DNA of 64,000 nt from Phreatobacter stygius (GTDB lineage Bacteria; Pseudomonadota; Alphaproteobacteria; Rhizobiales; Phreatobacteraceae): the NCBI RefSeq assembly GCF_005144885.1, contig NZ_CP039690.1, positions 5,655,001-5,719,000 of the forward strand, in the 5' to 3' direction. The translations under genes were made by a program, and so were the position numbers. Positions within the stretch are counted from its first letter, which is position 1. Each line of letters opens with the position of its first letter. This document shows positions 3,001 to 29,800 of the stretch, piece by piece. The notes beneath the pieces are model-generated. The model was not told the DNA's origin and made no database searches. It worked only from the letters and a program-made list of their open reading frames with translations.

Positions 3001-5562
3001 CGGGCGGTGACGGTGACGGCGGATGCAGCCAGCCGGACCTATGGCGATGCCAATCCGGCCTTCACCTATGGCCTGACCTCCGGATCGCTCGTCAACGGCG
3101 ATACGCTGACGGGAACTTTGGCCACCACCGCGAACGCGGCCTCCGATGTCGGAACCTATGGCCTGACCCAGGGCAGCGTCGCGATTTCGGCCAACTACGC
3201 GGTCACCTATGTCGGCGCCGACCTGACGGTGAACCAGCGTGCCGTGACGGTGACGGCCAGCGCGGCCAGCCGGGCCTATGGCGACGCCAACCCGGTGTTC
3301 GGCTTTACCACCACCTCGCTCGGGGCAGGGGTGGCAATTGCCGGCGGCCTGGTGACTTCGGCCGACGGCACCAGCGGTGTCGGCACCTATGGCATCACGC
3401 AAGGGACCGTGACCAATGCCAACAACCCGAACTATGTCGTGACCTATGTCGGCGCCGACCTGACGGTCAACCAGCGGGCGATCACGCTCTCGGCCAATGC
3501 GACCAGCCGCGCTTATGGCGACGCCAATTCGGCCTTCGGTTATGCGATCGGCGGCGCCGGTCTGGTGAATGGCGACACCGTGTCGGGCGCGCTCGCGACG
3601 ACGGCGACCAGCACGTCCGATGTCGGCAATTACGGCATCACCCAGGGCACGCTCGGCGTCTCGGCCAATTATGCCGTGACCTATGTCGGCGCGAACCTGA
3701 CGGTGAACCCGCGGGCGGTGACGGTGACCGCGGACGCGCAGAGCCGGACCTATGGCGACGCCAATCCGGCGCTGACCTACACCACCACGTCGCTCGGCGA
3801 CGGCGCGGCGCTGACCGGCGGGCTCGTGACCTCGGCCACGACCGCCACCGGCGTCGGCGCCTATGCGATCGGCCAGGGCAGCGTGACCTCGGCCAACAAT
3901 CCGAACTATGCGGTGACCTATGTCGGCGCCGACCTGACGATCAACCAGCGCGCGGTGACGGTGACGGCCGACGCCGGGAGCCGCACCTATGGCGATGCCA
4001 ACCCGACCCTCACCTATGGGGTGACCTCGGGTTCCCTGGTCAATGGCGATACGTTCTCAGGCGCGCTGGCGACCGCGGCGGCCAGTTCCGACGTCGGCAC
4101 CTATGGCATCACCCAGGGCACGCTCGCCAATGCCAACTACGCCATCATCTATCAGGGCGCCACCCTGACGGTGAACCAGCGGGCGGTGACGGTGACGGCG
4201 AATGCCACCAGCCGCCAATATGGCGACGCCAACCCGGTCCTGGGCTTCACCACGACCTCGCTCGGCGCAGGCGTGGCGATAGCGGGCAGCCTGGCGACCG
4301 CGGCCGATGGCACCAGCGGCATCGGCGCTTATGGCATTACCCAGGGGACCGTGACGACGGCGAACAATCCGAACTATGCGCTGACCTATGCCGGCGCCGA
4401 CCTGACGGTGACCCAGCGGGCCATCACGGTCACCGCCAATGCGCAGAGCCGGATCTATGGCGACGCCAATCCGGCGCTGACCTATGCCCTGACCTCGGGC
4501 TCGCTGGTCAATGGCGACGGCTTCAGCGGCAATCTCACGACGGCGGCCAACGGCACCTCCAATGTCGGCGCCTATGGCATCACCCAGGGCACCGTCGCGG
4601 TCTCCGCCAACTACGCCGTCACCTATGTCGGCGCGGATCTGACGGTGACGCCACGCGCGCTCGGCATCACCGCCGACGCGGCGAGCCGGATCTATGGCGA
4701 TGCCAATCCAGCCTTCACCTATGCGGTGACCTCGGGCTCCCTGATCAATGGCGACAGCCTGAGCGGAGCACTGTCGACCGGGGCAACCGTTGCCGCCAAT
4801 GTCGGGACCCATGCGATCACTCAGGGGACCCTCGGCAATGGCAACTACGCGATCAGTTATACCGGCGCCAACCTGACCATCACGCCGCGCGCCATCGGCG
4901 TGACGGCCGATGCGGCGAGCCGGACCTATGGCGATGCCAATCCGGTCTTCGCCTATAGCGTGACCGCGGGTTCCCTGGTCAATGGCGACCTGTTGTCGGG
5001 GGCCATGGCGAGCACGGCGATCGCCACCTCCAATGTCGGCGGCTATGCCATCACGCAGGGCTCGCTCGCCGCCTCGTCCAATTACACCATGACCTTCACG
5101 GGCGGATCGCTGGCGGTCACCCAGCGGGCGATCACGGTTTCAGCCGACAATCTCACCCGGCTCGCCGGCCAGGCCAATCCGCCGCTGACCTACAGCGTCG
5201 GCGGCCGTGGGCTCGCCAATGGCGACAGCCTGTCGGGCGAACTGGCGACGACGGCTTTGCAGGGCAGCAATCCCGGCGACTTTGCCATCAGCCAGGGCAC
5301 GCTGGTCGCGTCGGCCAATTACCTGATGACCTTCCAGGCCGGCAATCTCACCGTGACGCCGGCGGGTGCGCCGACCACCGGCCTGTCCAGCACGGTGGCC
5401 TCGGCCTTCCGCGCCAACGCCGCCTGGCCGGGCTCGTTCGACAGCATGAAGGCCTTCGCCCTGCTGGCCGGCGGCCGCTCCCCGGGGCTCGTCGAGGATC
5501 CCCGTTTCAGCGGCGGCCTGATCTGCCTTGGCGGCGCTTCGTCTTGTTTCGCAACGCCTTGA
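1..5562 (+). CDS. Giant secreted adhesin with GLUG motifs and MBG repeats (5' end outside window)
   Basis: This is the C-terminal part (over 1850 residues) of a large surface or secreted adhesin; the reading frame is open through base 1, so the signal and any secretion domain lie upstream. About residues 215-370 carry GLUG-type motifs (GGLVGLN, GGLVGYN, GGIAGLN, GGLIGRN), known from beta-helical adhesins and IgA proteases. From about residue 745 to 1790 there are some twelve MBG (mostly bacterial Ig-like) repeats of 75-80 residues, most with the signature YGDANP and ending in VTYVGADLTVNQRA. No sorting anchor is seen at the C terminus, which ends in a short Cys-containing tail (CLGGASSCF). 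Composition is Gly/Ala/Thr rich with very few charged residues, as is usual for this class. Secretion through a two-partner or type I system is inferred, not seen. Confidence 0.85.
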   Translation, partial: AVNISGRLGVTTLAGAPLTVAQPITIGDGGALTLNSGGLLNINAAVTVRGANAVTLRYNTSATTNLSFFGGSLTFANADGSAATTTVAGQSLTVNGVNHTLVYNMAQLDAIDGFNAVDGSVMTVHGAGRYGSYAMAGNLNATGVTYNAGLFGRDEASSFMGSFEGLGHTITGLTSAASGINFGALISVTGNGYYGQGGNVRALGLVDVNLQGQYTVGGMVGYNNGGFLTAVSITGRVSGSHGVGGLVGLNAGLITNAYSTATVSGTHTVGGLVGTSRGPIVLSYATGAVSAGDIAGGLVGYNLDYIVQSLATGSVTAGYSYAGGIAGLNTGTLVQTYATGAIRGVVAFGGLIGRNVAGGQVLDSAFDVETTGRAAGISDNANGWSTGMAALTTAQLQTNGLPAGFDPAFWAGGTGGLYPYLKTFFPGGVQAVSGFAYDGTGATPLASTVSVAGGGVVMGSAITGANGYYYVFGAAGTLSNPAGVAAYVTSGQQALSFRPGAPGALTTGLDISAGWRRDTPGAAVTSLAALESAFATTVGATAAAGLTIANRQIEISAAGFALDQAVSQSGTLALASNGTVTQTAALTAGTLRLDGTGSFALGAAANQVGTLAANVGSLSLANGANLATGSAADAMGTSITGVTTSGNTTIAVSGDLTIASGATVSGQNPVLSATGAFINNQGSDAVTATSGRWLIYSSAAASDVFGVTGSLLDSGNTAIFGATLMTLAPGSVSPTGNRYIFANQPTLIITSTSHSKTYGVDVTADLASHYTVTSFDTGLAGVYLGDSSATALTGTASVTSLGAAATAGVSGSPYTITVSQGTLASVSGYALSFVNSGTLTVDQRAITVTATTTSRSYGDANPTFAYTVGGAGLVNGDSLSGALATAATATSNVGTYGITQGTLADANYSITYLGATLTVNQRAVTVTADTLNRAYGDANPALTYTTSSLGAGAALNGSLTTSANGTSNVGAYAVSQGTVTDANNPNYTLTYVGANLTVNQRAVTVTADAASRTYGDANPAFTYGLTSGSLVNGDTLTGTLATTANAASDVGTYGLTQGSVAISANYAVTYVGADLTVNQRAVTVTASAASRAYGDANPVFGFTTTSLGAGVAIAGGLVTSADGTSGVGTYGITQGTVTNANNPNYVVTYVGADLTVNQRAITLSANATSRAYGDANSAFGYAIGGAGLVNGDTVSGALATTATSTSDVGNYGITQGTLGVSANYAVTYVGANLTVNPRAVTVTADAQSRTYGDANPALTYTTTSLGDGAALTGGLVTSATTATGVGAYAIGQGSVTSANNPNYAVTYVGADLTINQRAVTVTADAGSRTYGDANPTLTYGVTSGSLVNGDTFSGALATAAASSDVGTYGITQGTLANANYAIIYQGATLTVNQRAVTVTANATSRQYGDANPVLGFTTTSLGAGVAIAGSLATAADGTSGIGAYGITQGTVTTANNPNYALTYAGADLTVTQRAITVTANAQSRIYGDANPALTYALTSGSLVNGDGFSGNLTTAANGTSNVGAYGITQGTVAVSANYAVTYVGADLTVTPRALGITADAASRIYGDANPAFTYAVTSGSLINGDSLSGALSTGATVAANVGTHAITQGTLGNGNYAISYTGANLTITPRAIGVTADAASRTYGDANPVFAYSVTAGSLVNGDLLSGAMASTAIATSNVGGYAITQGSLAASSNYTMTFTGGSLAVTQRAITVSADNLTRLAGQANPPLTYSVGGRGLANGDSLSGELATTALQGSNPGDFAISQGTLVASANYLMTFQAGNLTVTPAGAPTTGLSSTVASAFRANAAWPGSFDSMKAFALLAGGRSPGLVEDPRFSGGLICLGGASSCFATP
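2230..5370 (+). repeat. Tandem MBG repeats, period about 235-240 bp
   Basis: Eleven YGDAN-bearing repeats plus a degenerate unit at each end encode the adhesin's Ig-like stalk. Two subtypes alternate: type A has (L/I)VNGD in the middle, type B has SLGAG or SLGDG and later NNPNY. The order is A B A B A B A B A A A A, so the first eight units form four dimers of about 470 bp and the last four are all type A. This suggests the array grew by copying dimers. Confidence 0.85.
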
Positions 5563-9307: not shown

Positions 9308-9659
9308 GGTTTGTTCCCTTTTTCGAAGGGGGCCTGGAATTTCATGTGCGTCATGGGCGGGCTAACGGATGCACACATCTCGACAATCCGTGTCTTGGCG
9401 CGCCGTTCCTCGCTTCGTCATGGCCATGCTTGTCACGGCCATCCACGTCTTCCGCGGTCAGGACAATGCGTGGATGGCCGGCACAAGGCCGGCCATGACG
9501 GAAAAGGGCGGCGCACGCGCTATCCGTGGTTCTCGTGCGAAGCCTGGAAGGGCGGCGAATTCAGGCTTGCTTTGCGAGATGTGTGAATCCGGTGGCTTGC
9601 GCGGGTGAGACCGCGCGGCCGGATCACGGCAAATCCGGCCGCATGGCGTGGGATCGTGG
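9308..9659. other. Intergenic DNA without a supported gene
   Basis: About 350 bp between the HPP operon and the universal stress gene. Apart from the second palindromic repeat it holds only short, unconvincing open frames and no recognisable RNA gene. Confidence 0.5.
9416..9501. repeat. Dispersed palindromic repeat, copy 2
   Basis: About 86 bp, closely matching the copy near 7.5 kb in both the outer arms (CGTCATGGCC and GGCCATGACGG) and the inner arms (CGGCCATCCACG and CGTGGATGGCC). The outer arms are more perfect than in copy 1. Confidence 0.75.
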
Positions 9660-11352: not shown

Positions 11353-11657
11353 GGCCTGTCGTCCTTGCAAAGCGCGGCTTGAACGGCGTGGAAGCATGGC
11401 CCGGCATTGCGGCGACTTGGTGCCGGGTGGGATGTGGGGCGGGAACGCTGACGCGGCCGTTCACGAGATGCTGCCGTCGCGGGCGCACATCTGATGGCGG
11501 CGGGTGAAATCACTCGGGCGGAATCAGAACCTGTACATCCGGCTTCAAGAGTCTGAACGGACTCCCGAAACCGCCTGCAGGCGACGTTCGGGTGATCCGG
11601 CAAAAAGCCAATGGCTGCCGGCCTTGGCGCTCTTCTTGACGGCGTGATTTTTATCGC
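11353..11657. other. Host/phage boundary region, no gene supported
   Basis: About 300 bp between the ICMT gene and the phage leader promoter. No attL-like copy of the distal tRNA-Val end, no integrase and no convincing coding frame were seen. The last 60 bases become clearly AT-rich. Confidence 0.5.
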
Positions 11658-11686
11658 TTGACATTTACTAGGAAAATAGTCATACA
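11658..11686 (+). promoter_or_regulatory. Candidate sigma70 promoter of the phage late operon
   Basis: A perfect -35 (TTGACA), a 17-base spacer and a weak -10 (CATACA) lie in an AT-rich patch. The spacer contains the dyad ACTA-ggaaaa-TAGT, placed where a repressor or activator could act. The predicted start point is about 20 bases before the leader hairpin. Confidence 0.5.
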
Positions 11687-11710
11687 CGAAATATACAGTC
11701 ACGACATTGC

Positions 11711-11740
11711 GCCCGGAGGTTCACACCTTCCGGGCTTTTT
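11711..11740 (+). terminator. Leader terminator at the head of the phage late operon
   Basis: GCCCGGAGG pairs with CCTTCCGGGC (one bulged T), followed by TTTTTG and TTTT. It lies directly downstream of the candidate promoter and 16 bases before the first start codon, so transcription must pass it to reach the late genes. That arrangement recalls lambda pR'-tR'; antitermination is inferred. Confidence 0.7.
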
Positions 11741-11755
11741 GTTTTGGGGTATCCG

Positions 11756-13021
11756 ATGGACGACGAAATCCCCGGCCGGCGCGACTGGCGCACCGACAAT
11801 CTCGCGCGCGCCGTTACCGGTTTGAATGGGGTTCCGTCGCCAAGCCTCAGAATGGGAGATCATCGTCAAGCCCTGCGAGACTATCTGCTGGCCAATGATC
11901 TGGATGTAGCGAACAGGCCGGTGGCGCCGAAGCGCACCTGGCGAGAAACCTTAAGTCTTGGCTGGCCCGGGCGCATGGCAATCGACCTCTACGACGCGTT
12001 CACCCTACCTGGCGATATGATGACTGACCCCAATCTGGCGCGGGAATTGTACGACGGTAGCCGCAACATGTCGCCCGAAACACGTCAGCGGGTGTTGGAC
12101 CTCTCCAGCATGGGTTTCGGTGCTGCATTCCGCGCCATCCGGGGAGCGGCGCCGGCAACTCGTTCGACGGGTGTTTCGGCGATGCGTGGGACGCCGCATG
12201 ATCCGGCTAGCCTGCCGCAACGGCCATTCCACGCGGACTATCCGAATCTTGCAATACGCGGTGACGGCAGCTCAACGACAGGCTTGCCCGCAGCCGGAGC
12301 GGCGTTCGGTAGTCCACTCACCCAGACCATTGACGGCGCCGCCATCACCGCGCCCATCATCGCGGGTCGGCGAACAGTCGGCGGTCCGGATCAGGGACTT
12401 TCTTTGGATGAAGTCCGCGGGCTTGGCGAGGCCCTCACGGGGCGACCGATACGTGCCGTGCCAGCATCCGAACTCCCAAAACGAGCGCGCGCCATCTACA
12501 CAAGCGAGGTCATGCCCGACGGCACCCGGCAGCGCTCGATCGCTTACAATCGGGACGAGCCACCGACGGCATTGCCGGGAACACTGGGGCATGAAGCAGG
12601 GCATGCCGTCGAGGATTTTGTGGGAATATTGTCTCGGGGACGCGGAATAAACCAGACCGGGCTTGATCGCCAACTTCGCCAGATTTATCACGACTCGAGG
12701 AGCAGTACCCCGGGACAGACACGCAGGTTGGCCGGCCCCGAGGATTGGGGATACCCAGCTTCGGAGGTGCCCGGTGAATTGATGGCCGAAGCCATTCGGG
12801 TCTACTTGCTCAATCCAAACTACATCAAATCGATAGCGCCCGAACTGGCTGAGCGGATCAGGCGCGCAGTCAACACGCATCCGGACCTGTCCAAGCACAT
12901 CCAGTTCAATCAAGGCGCGCCTTTGCCGCCAGGTGCCTTGGGAGCGGGTCAAGAACGCGGTCCCGAAGTGCCGCATGCGGCGCCGGAGGCCTGGTGTCCG
13001 CCGGGGCGGCTCTGCACGTGA
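11756..13021 (+). CDS. Phage zincin-like metalloprotease-domain protein
   Basis: A 421-residue protein of unassigned function. Around residue 280 it has TLGHEAGHAVEDF, an HExxH zinc-binding motif, and about 65 residues later SEVPGELMAEAIRVYLLNP, whose glutamates could supply the third zinc ligand. The N-terminal part (LPGDMMTDPNLARELYDGS, then LPQRPFHADYP and TIDGAAITAPIIAGRR) resembles polyvalent proteins carried by phages. A truncated relative lies downstream between the terminase genes. The ATG chosen has GGGG six bases upstream; an in-frame TTG lies four codons earlier. It is the first gene after the leader terminator. A virion-associated or injected peptidase is possible, but no substrate can be named. 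Confidence 0.65.
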   Translation: MDDEIPGRRDWRTDNLARAVTGLNGVPSPSLRMGDHRQALRDYLLANDLDVANRPVAPKRTWRETLSLGWPGRMAIDLYDAFTLPGDMMTDPNLARELYDGSRNMSPETRQRVLDLSSMGFGAAFRAIRGAAPATRSTGVSAMRGTPHDPASLPQRPFHADYPNLAIRGDGSSTTGLPAAGAAFGSPLTQTIDGAAITAPIIAGRRTVGGPDQGLSLDEVRGLGEALTGRPIRAVPASELPKRARAIYTSEVMPDGTRQRSIAYNRDEPPTALPGTLGHEAGHAVEDFVGILSRGRGINQTGLDRQLRQIYHDSRSSTPGQTRRLAGPEDWGYPASEVPGELMAEAIRVYLLNPNYIKSIAPELAERIRRAVNTHPDLSKHIQFNQGAPLPPGALGAGQERGPEVPHAAPEAWCPPGRLCT

Positions 13022-13637: not shown

Positions 13638-14204
13638 ATGCAACGCATGCGATCCAGGCGGCGTCTGGCGGCGGCTTCGGCCGCGCCGGCGCTGGCCGAT
13701 GAACCGACAGCATTGCCGCCCGCACAGGAGCCCGAAACGGCTCTGCCCGTCATTACGGAGACGGAGCGTCGGCCGGTCGGCGGTCAGCCAAAATACCAGA
13801 TCGATTTCGCCCGTCAGGCGGCCAAGCTTTGCGCTCTTGGCGCGACCGATGCGGATCTCGCCGAGTTCTTCGCGGTCCATATCTGCACCATCAACCGCTG
13901 GAAGGTGGCGCACGAGGCCTTCTGGCGCGCGCTCAAGCTCGGCAAGGGTGCGGTCGATGACATGGTCGAGCGCAGCCTCTACCAGCGCGCGGTGGGCTTT
14001 TCCTACGACACGATCAAGATTTTCACCCACCAGGGCCAGGTCATCAGGGCCGAGCATCGCGAGTACTATCCGCCCGACACCGCGGCGGCGATCTTCTGGC
14101 TGAAGACGCGCCGGCCGGAGGAATGGCGCGAAAAGCTTGACGTGAACCACAGCGGCAACCTGACCGTCGAACTTGTCAAATTCTCGGACGACCCGGAGTC
14201 CTGA
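13638..14204 (+). CDS. Terminase small subunit
   Basis: A 188-residue DNA-recognition subunit of the packaging motor. The middle holds a helix-turn-helix (AAKLCALGATDADLAEFF, then HICTINRWKVAHEAF) typical of phage small terminases, followed by the family segments SLYQRAVGFSYDTIKIF and YYPPDTAAAIFWLKTRRPEEWRE. The start chosen begins MQRMRSRRR and has GATAGGA about ten bases upstream; a longer frame begins 84 bases earlier but is Ser/Arg rich and unlikely. Its 3' end and the first codons of terL were once overlapping, as shown by the duplicated junction downstream. Confidence 0.85.
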   Translation: MQRMRSRRRLAAASAAPALADEPTALPPAQEPETALPVITETERRPVGGQPKYQIDFARQAAKLCALGATDADLAEFFAVHICTINRWKVAHEAFWRALKLGKGAVDDMVERSLYQRAVGFSYDTIKIFTHQGQVIRAEHREYYPPDTAAAIFWLKTRRPEEWREKLDVNHSGNLTVELVKFSDDPES

Positions 14205-14250
14205 CGGCTGGCAGCCGCGCTGATGCCGGCGCTCGCCGTGGGACCGTCTG
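14128..14250 (+). repeat. Direct repeat, left copy (terS end / old terL start)
   Basis: 123 bp that match 15010-15132 at about 83% by eye, offset 882 bp. This copy encodes the intact terS C terminus. In another frame it keeps a fossil terL start: a TTG codon at 14173 followed by SNSRTTRSPDGWQPR and then TGA where the working copy has TGG. Confidence 0.85.
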
Positions 14251-14259
14251 AGTTCGGGG

Positions 14260-15009
14260 TTGGGCAACACCGGCGTCGGTCTTCTCGACGTCACGCCGGT
14301 TGGCCTGCCGTTTGCCGCACAGGAAGCCAAGCGCGACTATGAACAGGGCAACTATTGGGGCGCCGCAGCCAATGCCGCGTCGGTTTTGCCGCTTGGGCTG
14401 GTCGCGGGAGGCGTAAGGCGAGCTGGAACATTTGCGTCAGGTCGCGGCGCTGATCCAGCATCCAAGACCGCGAGAATGAATCCTCCGCCGGACCTGCCGC
14501 AGCGGCCTTTCGAACTCGATTACCCGCGGGGAGTCGATGGATCGGGACCGCTCGAACGAACCATCGACGGAGACCCCATCACAGCCCGATTCGTTGCCGG
14601 GCGACGCGTCGCCGGCGGCCCCGACGAGGGGCTCGCGAGGGGAGAATTTGACGCCATTGCAGAGGCGACAACGGGCCAAAGGCCTTTGGCAGTTGCGTCA
14701 CGCGATATTCGAGGAGACGCCGCTCGGTTGGTTGTGGACCGTCGATCCAACCGACCTACCTCCATATCCTATGACCGGGCGCTCCGGGCGGACCAAGCCG
14801 ACCGAGTAGTTGGACACGAAGTCGGCCATGCGATTGATGTTCTCGCTGGGCGAATACCGACACGAGGTCTCCACGACCAACGTGGCGCCGTCTATGACGC
14901 ACTGAACAACCCGCAGAGGCGCCTGCCGAGGGCTGCACAGGCCATGACCAGCGCCGGAGGACATCGGGGCGGTCGTTCCGGTCGGGCACCAATTCAAGCC
15001 CGGCAAATC
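14260..15009 (+). pseudogene. Truncated second zincin-like gene inserted at the terminase junction
   Basis: Reading from a TTG, this frame is related to the complete zincin gene upstream: LPQRPFELDYP, LERTIDGDPITARFVAGRR and GGPDEGL correspond to LPQRPFHADYP, LTQTIDGAAITAPIIAGRR and GGPDQGL. It has VVGHEVGHAIDVLAG, a second HExxH motif. It then falls apart after YDALNNPQRRLPRAAQ; the matching PED-G segment appears in another frame, and the ELMAEAIR region with the expected third ligand is missing. The frame has no stop and runs into terL, so annotation software may call one 707-residue fusion. I read it as a gene fragment between direct repeats rather than a working fusion. Confidence 0.7.
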
Positions 15010-15132
15010 GCCGAAAGCCTGATTTCAACCACGGCGGCAACCCGACGGTCGAACGTGTCAAATTCTCGAACGATCCGGATTCCTAACGGCTGGCAGCCGC
15101 GCTGGTATCAGCGCGCGCTGTGGGACCATCTG
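15010..15132 (+). repeat. Direct repeat, right copy (terS remnant / working terL start)
   Basis: The right-hand copy of the 123-bp repeat. It contains a remnant of a second terS C terminus, DFNHGGNPTVERVKF then SNDPDS and TAA, with no terS body in front of it, and overlapping this the GTG start of the working terL. Confidence 0.85.
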
Positions 15133-16383
15133 GAAGCGGGCGGCAAACGCGCCTTGATGGTGGCGCATCGGCGCTGGGGCAAGGACGAGGTGGCGCTGCA
15201 TCGCTCCGCCGTCGCCATGATCGAACGGCCGGCAACCTATTGGCACATGCTGCCGGAATATGGTCAGGGCCGGAAGGCGATCTGGAACGCCGTCAACCCG
15301 CATTCGGGCAAGCGGCGCATCGACGAGGCCTTTCCGCACGAGATCCGCAACCGCTCGAACGACAATGAGATGTTCATCGAGCTCATCAACGGCGCGACCT
15401 GGCAGGTGGTCGGGTCCGACAGTTATGACAGCGTGGTCGGTTCACCGCCGGTCGGCGTGACCTTTTCCGAATGGGCTTTGGCCGATCCGCGCGCCTGGGC
15501 CTATATCCAGCCGATCCTGTCGGAGAATGACGGCTGGGCGCTGTTCATCACCACGCCGCGCGGCAAGAACCATGTCGAGCGCATGGTGCGCGGGCATGAC
15601 AAGGATCCGAACTGGTATGTCGGCATCCAGACCGTCGACGACACCCACGCCATCAGCCGGGAGGCGGTGGACGAGGCGCGCAAGGGCTATCGGGCGCTGT
15701 TCGGCGACGACCAGGGCGACATGCTGATCGAGCAGGAATATTACTGCTCTTTCGATGCCGCGGTGATTGGCGCCTATTACGGCCGGCAGATGGCGCAGGC
15801 CCTGCGCGAGCGTCGGATCTGCGGCGTTCCCCATGATCCGGCAGCCCCCGTCTGGACCGCCTGGGACCTCGGCATGGATGACGCGACCGCGATCTGGTTC
15901 GTGCAATGTGTCGGGCGCGAGTTCCACGCGATCGACTATTACGAGGCGACCGGCATGGACCTTGCCCATTACGTCAAGCTGGTGAAGGACAAGCCCTACC
16001 TCTACGGCGGCCATATCCTGCCGCATGACGTGAAGGCGCGCGAACTCGGCACCGGCAAGAGCCGCGAGGAGGTGCTGAAGACGCTCGGGCTGGCGGTCAC
16101 CGTCTGTCCGGACCACCGGGTCGACGACGGCATCAATGCGCTGCGCCTGATGTTGCCGAAACTCTGGTTCGACCAGGAGAAATGCGCACGCGGCATCGAG
16201 GCCTTGAGCCTCTACCGCGCCGATTACGACGAGAAGAACCAGGTGCTCAAACCGAAACCCGTGCACGACTGGGCGAGCCACCCGGCCGATGCCCTGCGCT
16301 ATCTAGCCATCGGCATCGGCGACGCGCCGGATGCGCCGGTCGGCCTGCAGAACTGGCAGATGCCCAAACGGGTGGTGGCCTGA
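15055..16383 (+). CDS. Terminase large subunit
   Basis: A 442-residue packaging ATPase/nuclease. The N terminus starts IRIPNGWQPRWYQRALWDHL, with the ATPase Walker A-like segment VAHRRWGKDE, a Walker B region GVTFSEWALADPRAW, and coupling motif FITTPRGKNH. The C-terminal nuclease domain has acidic residues in VWTAWDLGMDDATAIWF, in the DHRVDDGINALR region and in HDWASHPADALRYLAIG. The start chosen is a GTG that overlaps the terS remnant and gives the usual N terminus of the family; the frame is open upstream through the zincin fragment, so the protein could be translated as a fusion, though I think this unlikely. Confidence 0.85.
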   Translation: MSNSRTIRIPNGWQPRWYQRALWDHLEAGGKRALMVAHRRWGKDEVALHRSAVAMIERPATYWHMLPEYGQGRKAIWNAVNPHSGKRRIDEAFPHEIRNRSNDNEMFIELINGATWQVVGSDSYDSVVGSPPVGVTFSEWALADPRAWAYIQPILSENDGWALFITTPRGKNHVERMVRGHDKDPNWYVGIQTVDDTHAISREAVDEARKGYRALFGDDQGDMLIEQEYYCSFDAAVIGAYYGRQMAQALRERRICGVPHDPAAPVWTAWDLGMDDATAIWFVQCVGREFHAIDYYEATGMDLAHYVKLVKDKPYLYGGHILPHDVKARELGTGKSREEVLKTLGLAVTVCPDHRVDDGINALRLMLPKLWFDQEKCARGIEALSLYRADYDEKNQVLKPKPVHDWASHPADALRYLAIGIGDAPDAPVGLQNWQMPKRVVA

Positions 16384-28776: not shown

Positions 28777-29798
28777 AGTGTTTGATCCCGGGCTTTGATG
28801 GTGCAATCTCGATGCAGGAATCGAGGGACGCGCTATGGGCCAGGTTCTCCACGGGAGCGCCACGACGACTGAGGCGGTCCGTCGAGCGATACAACATAGT
28901 CAAGAGAGCCTGAGGGCTCTGTCTAAGCGCTACGGGATTAACCAGAAGACGGTCGCGAAGTGGAAGAAGCGGACCTCGGTGACCGATGTGCCGACCGGGC
29001 CGAAGAACCCGACTTCGACAGTGCTGACGATTGAGGAAGAGGCCGTGATCGTCGCCTTCCGGAAGCATACTTTGCTGCCGCTCGACGACTGCCTCTATGC
29101 GCTACAGCCGACGATCCCGACGCTGACGCGGTCATCCCTGCACCGCTGCCTGCAGCGTCACGGGATCAGCCGCCTGCCCGAGGTCGAAGGCGAGAAGCCG
29201 GCGAAGACGAAGTTCAAATCCTATCCGATCGGCTTCTTCCACATCGATATCGCCGAGGTGCAGACCGCTGAGGGCAAGCTGTACCTCTATGTCGCCATCG
29301 ATCGCACGAGCAAATTCGCCGTCGTACAGATCGTCAGGAAGACGGGGCGGACCTCCGCGTCAGCCTTCCTCTCGGCCTTGATCGAGGCCGTCCCCTACAA
29401 GATCCATACCGTTCTCACCGACAACGGCATCCAGTTCACCTTCCCGCCACGGTATGCCGATGGTCCGACGGCGCGCTACGTGACGCACATGTTCGGCATG
29501 CGCTGCCAGGAGAACGGCATCGAGCACCGCCTCACCAAGGTGAAGCACCCTTGGACGAACGGCCAGGTCGAGCGCATGAACCGCACCATCAAAGAAGCCA
29601 CCGTCAAGCGTTACCACTACGACAGCCACCGGCAGTTCGAAGCGCATCTCGCCGACTTCGTCAGCGCCTACAATTTCGGGCGGAGGCTGAAGACCCTCAA
29701 GGGCCTCACACCCTACGAATTCATCTGCAAACTCTGGACAACAGAGCCTCAACGATTCAGGCTCGATCCACTCCATCAAATGCCGGGACTAAACACTT
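28776..29798 (+). mobile_element. IS481-family insertion sequence
   Basis: A 1023-bp element with 26-bp terminal inverted repeats that match at 22 positions: both ends begin AAGTGTTT and end TTTGATGG, with a shared TCCCGG between. It carries one transposase gene. The target duplication is unclear: at most TA or a single base can be made out. Joining the flanks across the element gives CTCTACTAG or CTCTACTAA, restoring the stop codon of the preceding gene. Confidence 0.88.
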
Positions 29799-29800
29799 AG
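28835..29800 (+). CDS. IS481-family transposase
   Basis: A 321-residue DDE transposase. The N terminus is a helix-turn-helix (VRRAIQHSQESLRALSKRYG, then TVAKWKKR), and the integrase core carries the three acids in GFFHIDIAEVQ, HTVLTDNGIQF and WTNGQVERMN. The C terminus (YNFGRRLKTLKGLTPYEFIC) is typical of IS481. The protein looks intact. Its TAG stop begins with the last base of the right inverted repeat and is completed by flanking phage DNA. Confidence 0.9.
   Translation: MGQVLHGSATTTEAVRRAIQHSQESLRALSKRYGINQKTVAKWKKRTSVTDVPTGPKNPTSTVLTIEEEAVIVAFRKHTLLPLDDCLYALQPTIPTLTRSSLHRCLQRHGISRLPEVEGEKPAKTKFKSYPIGFFHIDIAEVQTAEGKLYLYVAIDRTSKFAVVQIVRKTGRTSASAFLSALIEAVPYKIHTVLTDNGIQFTFPPRYADGPTARYVTHMFGMRCQENGIEHRLTKVKHPWTNGQVERMNRTIKEATVKRYHYDSHRQFEAHLADFVSAYNFGRRLKTLKGLTPYEFICKLWTTEPQRFRLDPLHQMPGLNT

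What the first reader, a model, noticed from the sequence alone, without database searches (positions are those of the whole stretch)
14128..15132. Truncated zincin cassette between terS and terL, flanked by 123-bp direct repeats
The terS-terL junction occurs twice, 882 bp apart and about 83% identical. The left copy keeps a complete terS end and a fossil terL start that stops at codon 17 (TGA for TGG); the right copy keeps a terS stub of about 22 codons and the working GTG start of terL. Between them lies a broken relative of the zincin gene. The simplest reading is recombination with a related phage having the order zincin-terS-terL, followed by loss of most of the second terS and the end of the second zincin gene.
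Basis: seen in the sequence. Interest (0 to 1): 0.72.

Follow-up and report, generated by a model that had tools for sequence, protein, structure and literature searches.

The report
Recombination scar between phage packaging genes
A prophage carries a broken metalloprotease gene wedged between its two DNA-packaging genes, with the packaging-gene junction duplicated on either side; related prophages without the insert, one of them with an intact protease gene upstream, suggest an out-of-register recombination scar, ordinary in kind but unusually legible.

Summary
The terS-terL junction occurs twice, 882 bp apart. The securely homologous core is 106 bp (14145-14250 / 15027-15132), 91 of 106 identical, not 123. 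Between the copies lies a zincin-gene fragment (14251 to about 15024), trimmed at both ends. Two relatives with this prophage beside the same host gene lack the insert: G003 and viral contig L024. L024 has an intact zincin directly before terS, the nearest relative found of the fragment (65% aa). Best reading: out-of-register recombination between two such (pro)phages, with loss of the redundant middle. The left copy supplies TerS, the right copy TerL, and the fragment is probably dead. Two cautions: a terS-versus-terL mosaic test showed no sign of two parents, and a one-step template switch is not excluded. Three other loci of this zincin family also carry a copied end of a neighbouring gene; 0 of 300 control genes (mostly core genes) were flanked by direct repeats. 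Published precedent exists (LRRHood): a new member of a known kind.

The parts
11744..13021 (+). zincin A: longer zincin-family gene (425 aa, HEAGH) upstream of terS, divergent from fragment B (30% aa)
   Evidence: lies before terS like the intact zincin of L024
13638..14204 (+). terS, complete; its end lies in the left repeat copy
   Evidence: phrog_309 terminase small subunit E 6.5e-41
14145..14250 (+). left copy of the duplicated terS-terL junction (106-bp core; the 83% match starts at 14127)
14173..14223 (+). fossil terL start (TTG) closed by a stop at codon 17
14251..15024 (+). zincin fragment B, no in-frame stop, HEVGH at 14815-14829; lacks about 42 N-terminal residues and everything after about residue 292 of the L024 relative; its end is poorly conserved
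   Evidence: 73% DNA to L024 over 14287-14895
15027..15132 (+). right copy of the junction (106-bp core)
15027..15086 (+). terS 3' stub, 19 codons and stop
15055..16383 (+). terL, GTG start, 442 aa; 93% aa to G003 over 440 aa, no stop in G003
   Evidence: phrog_2 terminase large subunit E 5e-26
14260..16383 (+). open zincin-TerL frame, 707 aa (mechanical ORF; expression unknown)

Best explanation
The region is a recombination scar in a SU10-type prophage, not a device. One genome with the order zincin A - terS - terL was joined out of register to a relative with the order zincin B - terS - terL: the start of the first genome's terL was spliced to about codon 43 of the second genome's zincin (junction at 14250/14251). 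The redundant stretch between the zincin and the end of the second terS was then lost (junction near 15024-15027), leaving a 19-codon terS stub before the working terL. Shown: the duplication, both junctions, the uninterrupted site in two relatives, and the zincin-terS-terL order in one of them. Inferred: two parents, the order of the two steps, and that fragment B is dead. Because terS and terL overlap in the relatives, an insert between them can keep both genes whole only if the overlap is duplicated; that selection would explain why the repeat covers the overlap. Consequence, inferred: TerS is made from the left copy, and TerL from the GTG at 15055 without normal coupling to terS.
For: Uninterrupted junction in G003 (terS stretch 84.6%, terL stretch 91.1% DNA) and L024 (84.3%, 91.5%). 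L024 order: host gene - intact zincin - terS - terL. Fragment B is 64.7% aa identical to the L024 zincin, 50.0% to that of G003 and 30.2% to zincin A. The left junction abuts zincin homology with no filler. In the terL half, 6 of 46 sites are changed only in the left (fossil) copy and none only in the right. terL aligns over 440 aa without stops, dN/dS 0.11 against G003. Of 258 codons of B none is a stop although the repeats differ at 14%, which fits a merger of already diverged copies better than long decay after a clean duplication, but weakly (simulated chance of no stop 0.22-0.16 at 7-8.5% change, indels ignored). A copied gene end beside a zincin is also seen in G003, L026 and L029.
Against: No mosaic signal: window-specific changes are not significantly commoner in terS than in terL (54:52 against 60:82, Fisher P 0.20; third codon positions P 0.87). 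The few informative sites group left and right copies together (3 against 1, all 3 in the terL half), as expected if both parents were window-like or the copy was made within one genome. Decay of the useless half is not clean: in the terS half 5 of 60 sites are changed only in the left (working) copy and 3 of 60 only in the right stub. Two illegitimate junctions are needed. Only one genome carries the duplication. In G003 the zincin is after terL, so the ancestral order is not certain.
Confidence: 0.68

Rival explanations
1. One-step template switch: while copying terL, replication jumped to a zincin gene of another template, copied about 770 nt, and returned about 106 bp behind its point of departure, so the junction was duplicated within one genome.
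For: Same number of junctions in one episode. Left and right copies share 3 sites against G003 and L024. G003 has an exact 48-nt repeat around its own zincin, so a fresh duplication of this kind seems to exist there. No two-parent signal.
Against: The copies differ at 15 of 106 sites, so the event would be old, yet fragment B has no stop in 258 codons (weak evidence) and its conserved residues up to HEVGH are kept (1 of 23 deviates).
Confidence: 0.24
2. The zincin-TerL frame is a real fused gene: terL is translated with an N-terminal zincin-like domain.
For: Frame open for 707 codons; both junctions keep the terL frame; up to the HEVGH helix B has no significant excess of changes (18 B-only against 13 L024-only, P 0.47); an ATG in the frame at 14476 precedes the conserved catalytic part.
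Against: The zincin is an internal fragment; after HEVGH 19 of the 32 family-conserved columns are missing and 6 changed. terL keeps a start codon at the G003 position with 17 of 18 upstream bases the same. The frame starts before 14476 are TTG only. No zincin-TerL frame in the other TerL loci.
Confidence: 0.05
3. The zincin gene is an active mobile element whose insertion machinery makes long target duplications.
For: The zincin sits at different places in related prophages (before terS, after terL, among what by eye are tail genes in G005) and is flanked by copies of neighbouring sequence in several.
Against: No transposase, recombinase or endonuclease family in the zincin frame or in 5 other ORFs of 80-102 aa in the insert (Pfam only); no inverted repeats at the insert ends (one 17-nt pair, inside the duplicated junction copies); repeat lengths differ widely (48, 68, 106, 281 bp); 12 of 16 zincin-bearing sources show no flank shown to come from a neighbouring gene.
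Confidence: 0.03

Closest known systems
Accessory segment flanked by direct repeats in mycobacteriophage LRRHood (PMC3029335; passages seen)
   Same: 1.35-kb segment absent from close relatives, flanked by 29-bp direct repeats of a gene's 3' end that is single-copy in them
   Different: Here the repeat is longer and diverged, covers an overlap of two essential genes and preserves both, and the insert is broken
Phage morons / mosaicism by illegitimate recombination (introduction of PMC3029335, passages seen)
   Same: Gene present in one genome between genes contiguous in relatives
   Different: No promoter or terminator found in the insert by consensus scan; the insert is a fragment
Zincin-like metallopeptidase domains of polyvalent phage proteins (PMC5512222; passages seen)
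   Same: HEXXH plus a glutamate in a following helix; that paper links them to PDB 4dv8, which also heads the structural list here (Z 8.1, rmsd 6.2 over 147 residues)
   Different: Shorter proteins with no second domain recognised; similarity by fold only and of middling strength

Membership tests
Moron-type accessory insertion | Present in one genome, absent between the same contiguous genes of relatives | tested here: met
   G003 and L024 have terS overlapping terL
Moron-type accessory insertion | Own promoter and terminator (typical, per PMC3029335) | tested here: inconclusive
   0 of each in 14100-15200 by consensus scan; other promoter types not covered. I do not file it as a classic moron
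LRRHood-type segment flanked by direct repeats | Flanking repeat is single-copy in relatives | tested here: met
   a junction pattern has 1 match in L024 and 2 in the window's own IMG/VR contig
Zincin-like MPTase of polyvalent proteins | HEXXH and a conserved glutamate in a following helix | tested here: met
   Alignment of 10 members: H231, E232, H235, E290 invariant, E286 nearly so
Zincin-like MPTase of polyvalent proteins | Multidomain protein | tested here: not met
   No second domain by Pfam or NCBIfam among 10 members; one weak hit in each library, E 0.055 and 0.032
Zincin-like MPTase of polyvalent proteins | Zincin fold | tested here: inconclusive
   Mean pLDDT 67.7; no Foldseek hit at E 0.001; best Z 8.1
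Transposable element / insertion sequence | Transposase gene and terminal inverted repeats | tested here: not met
   Zincin frame: no Pfam or PHROG family; 5 other ORFs: no Pfam family; inverted repeats:
SU10-type short-tailed phage (prophage) | SU10 portal, major capsid and adaptor proteins | tested here: met
   PF23899 E 1.8e-206, PF17236 E 1.8e-91, PF24175 E 6.6e-29

The most novel reading that the evidence does not exclude
In alphaproteobacterial SU10-type and related (pro)phages, effector genes such as this zincin are repeatedly gained by out-of-register recombination that duplicates the end of a neighbouring gene, so the fossil ends are a readable record of each gain; the window is the extreme case, where the overlap of two essential genes had to be duplicated. 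Four such scars were found among 16 zincin-bearing sources, no flanking repeats around 300 control genes.
Probability: 0.35. Interest if true: 0.5.

Novelty: new member of a known kind. Interest (0 to 1): 0.36.

Why it matters
Phage mosaic joints often keep no trace of the event that made them (established knowledge, recalled). Here both joints, a probable donor arrangement and the uninterrupted site are all visible, and the duplication shows how an insert can land between two overlapping essential genes without destroying either. If the fossil-end pattern holds in larger samples it gives a simple way to count and orient gains of phage effector genes.

Tried and rejected
Mosaic test: if the left half (terS) and the right half (terL) came from different parents, the window's distance to G003 and L024 should change at the scar. 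It did not significantly. This weakens the two-parent model and is reported as such.

Single-step target duplication: kept as the main rival, because G003 has an exact 48-nt repeat.

Assembly artefact: unlikely for the window (single 7.35-Mb contig). For G003, listed as a metagenome bin, the exact 48-nt repeat could in principle be a misassembly; not tested here.

L123/L124 first looked like a further flanking repeat (408 bp, 90%); it is a shared N-terminal domain of two neighbouring genes and is not counted as a fossil end. L125 shows a 121-nt repeat around a minor 36-nt profile match but none around its main zincin; not followed up.

Structure search: Foldseek gave no hit at E 0.001; VIA-align gave lethal-factor catalytic domains (best Z 8.1, rmsd 6.2 over 147; 1zxv Z 8.0, rmsd 3.0 over 127), IrrE (Z 7.3, rmsd 3.5 over 101) and pro-pro endopeptidases (Z 6.0, rmsd about 4 over about 125), middling by the tool's own note. 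The sequence profile found no solved structure at E 1.

Zincin search of the phage record collection: no match. Zincin search of genome contigs: only one locus, on a 31,413-base contig of a Hyphomicrobiales metagenome bin, the length of G003 C48. Zincin profile in 385 genomes of the class: 4 matched, the window's own included. Literature: searches for Phreatobacter prophages (a guess at the host from memory, untested) and for partial duplications in phage mosaics gave nothing used; led to the two papers cited, seen as passages only; two searches were seen as listings only. No search was made for this locus in print.

Attachment-site search between the tRNA-Val end and the left prophage end: only short words, best E 0.017.

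Full report
What is there. The window lies in a 7.35-Mb single-contig genome. Positions of about 11.7-34.3 kb hold a SU10-type prophage: portal, major capsid and adaptor match the SU10 Pfam families, and terS, scaffold, tail and lysis genes match PHROGs. The terS-terL junction occurs twice, 882 bp apart. The repeat is far beyond chance (E 5.7e-32; score 68.5 against a maximum of 17 in 200 shuffles). The core that is certainly terS/terL is 14145-14250 and 15027-15132, 91 of 106 identical with a longest identical run of 19. The outer 18 nt match at 12 of 18 and may be zincin coding sequence, so the right junction is placed at about 15024-15027.

Anatomy. The left copy completes terS and holds a terL start (TTG 14173) that stops at codon 17. 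The right copy holds 19 terS codons and the terL start (GTG 15055), followed by a 442-aa TerL. Between them, 14251 to about 15024 encodes an internal fragment of a zincin-family protein. Against the intact relative in L024 (418 aa) it begins at residue 43 and ends near residue 292. Up to HEVGH 1 of 23 family-conserved columns is changed; after it, of 32, 19 are missing and 6 changed, against 0-5 deviations in the nine other members. The fragment is therefore probably inactive (inferred). It lies in the frame of terL, so a 707-aa ORF is open.

Relatives. A TerL search of 61 relatives (own genome included) matched 10; the closest other than itself is G003 at 93%, the next 46%. In G003 terS and terL are uninterrupted. 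In L024 (IMG/VR, 6.3 kb, TerL 94%) they are uninterrupted too, with an intact zincin just before terS. A degenerate junction pattern matched only L024 and the window's own contig in viral contigs. In 397 genomes of the order, 92 matched the 610-bp terS query at E 0.001; the only strong one outside the window's genome was G003, and the next best was 68% over 203 bp. Of 81 viral loci with TerL (two of them the window's own contig), 17 had a recognisable terS upstream; in the 15 that are not the window's own, terS runs 7 to 115 nt past the start of the TerL match. The other 64 had no terS that this profile recognises. Fragment B is closest to the L024 zincin (64.7% aa; G003 50.0%, G005 42.4%, zincin A 30.2%).

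How it most likely arose. Out-of-register recombination joined the terL start of one genome to about codon 43 of the zincin of another with the order zincin-terS-terL, and the redundant zincin end and most of the second terS were lost. Since terS and terL overlap, an insert between them keeps both genes whole only if the overlap is duplicated. Against this: the two-parent prediction failed to show in a mosaic test (54:52 against 60:82, P 0.20; third positions P 0.87), the informative sites group left and right copies 3 to 1, and decay of the useless halves is clear in the terL half (6 left-only, 0 right-only of 46) but not in the terS half (5 left-only, 3 right-only of 60). A one-step template switch within one lineage therefore remains a serious rival. 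In its disfavour, the repeats differ at 14% while fragment B has no stop; the simulated chance of that is 0.22-0.16 at 7-8.5% neutral change, so this is weak.

A wider pattern. Flanking direct repeats were sought in 18 sources; 2 had no zincin on the strand read, leaving 16. Six of 16 had flanking repeats. L123 and L124 are the same phage (99.8%), and their repeat is a shared N-terminal domain of two adjacent genes. The other four are copies of a neighbouring gene's end: the window (106 bp), G003 (terL 3' end, 48 nt exact), L026 (281 bp, 77%, a fossil with an in-frame stop) and L029 (68 bp, 87%, end of the gene upstream). The controls used a slightly stricter rule; under that rule the same six sources stay positive and L125 adds a repeat around a minor profile match. 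With genes at least 500 bp from both ends of the stretch, as in the controls, 12 sources remain, four of them with a neighbour-derived flank. In the controls 0 of 71 terL genes and 0 of 229 other long plus-strand ORFs in the TerL loci had such repeats. The control genes are mostly core genes, so this control is generous to the pattern. The zincin position also differs: before terS (window A, L024), between terS and terL (window B), after terL (G003), and among what look by eye like tail genes (G005).

The zincin. The family has HEXXH and conserved glutamates and no Pfam or NCBIfam assignment better than E 0.03. A model of moderate confidence (pLDDT 67.7) is most like lethal-factor catalytic domains, IrrE and pro-pro endopeptidases at middling Z. 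Zincin-like domains of polyvalent phage proteins were linked to the same PDB entry, 4dv8 (PMC5512222, passages seen). This is a fold-level likeness only. Function is untested; a virion-delivered or host-takeover protease is a guess from context.

Known kind. LRRHood carries a 1.35-kb segment flanked by 29-bp direct repeats of a gene end that is single-copy in relatives (PMC3029335, passages seen). The present case is of that kind, with a longer and more diverged repeat, a broken insert, and two overlapping essential genes preserved.

Context. Prophage genes and host genes differ between the window and G003 to similar extents (dS 0.29-0.66 for 9 prophage genes, 0.44 and 0.52 for 2 host genes; dN/dS 0.07-0.27 in the prophage). 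None of the six tyrosine-integrase hits of the genome lies in the window; other recombinases were not searched. The element may have been inherited with the chromosome and kept under selection; this was not pursued.

Noticed in passing
window 11700-34300: SU10-type prophage with packaging, capsid, tail and lysis genes but no tyrosine integrase; same place beside the same host gene in G003 and L024, divergence from G003 like the host's, purifying selection: possibly domesticated.
   Followed up: partly
L015:2807-2854 and 4216-4263 (G003 C48): Zincin gene after terL followed by an exact 48-nt copy of the terL 3' end: a fresh version of the same kind of scar, if the assembly is right.
   Followed up: yes
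L026:3811-8395: Two zincin genes and a third short gene between them, with a fossil 3' end of the upstream gene before the second zincin.
   Followed up: partly
L123:5530-8167: Neighbouring genes share a 136-aa N-terminal domain but have different C-terminal parts (zincin; possible ADP-ribosyltransferase by eye).
   Followed up: partly
window 9359-9591: A dispersed repeat of about 230 bp: 15 further near-full-length copies at 89-92% listed in this genome, plus shorter ones.
   Followed up: no
window 28835-29800: Transposase-like gene (rve domain) inside the prophage between endolysin-like and tail genes.
   Followed up: no
window 11657-11745: Promoter-like sequence and a terminator-like hairpin conserved at the left prophage end in window, G003 and L024, seen by eye.
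   Followed up: no
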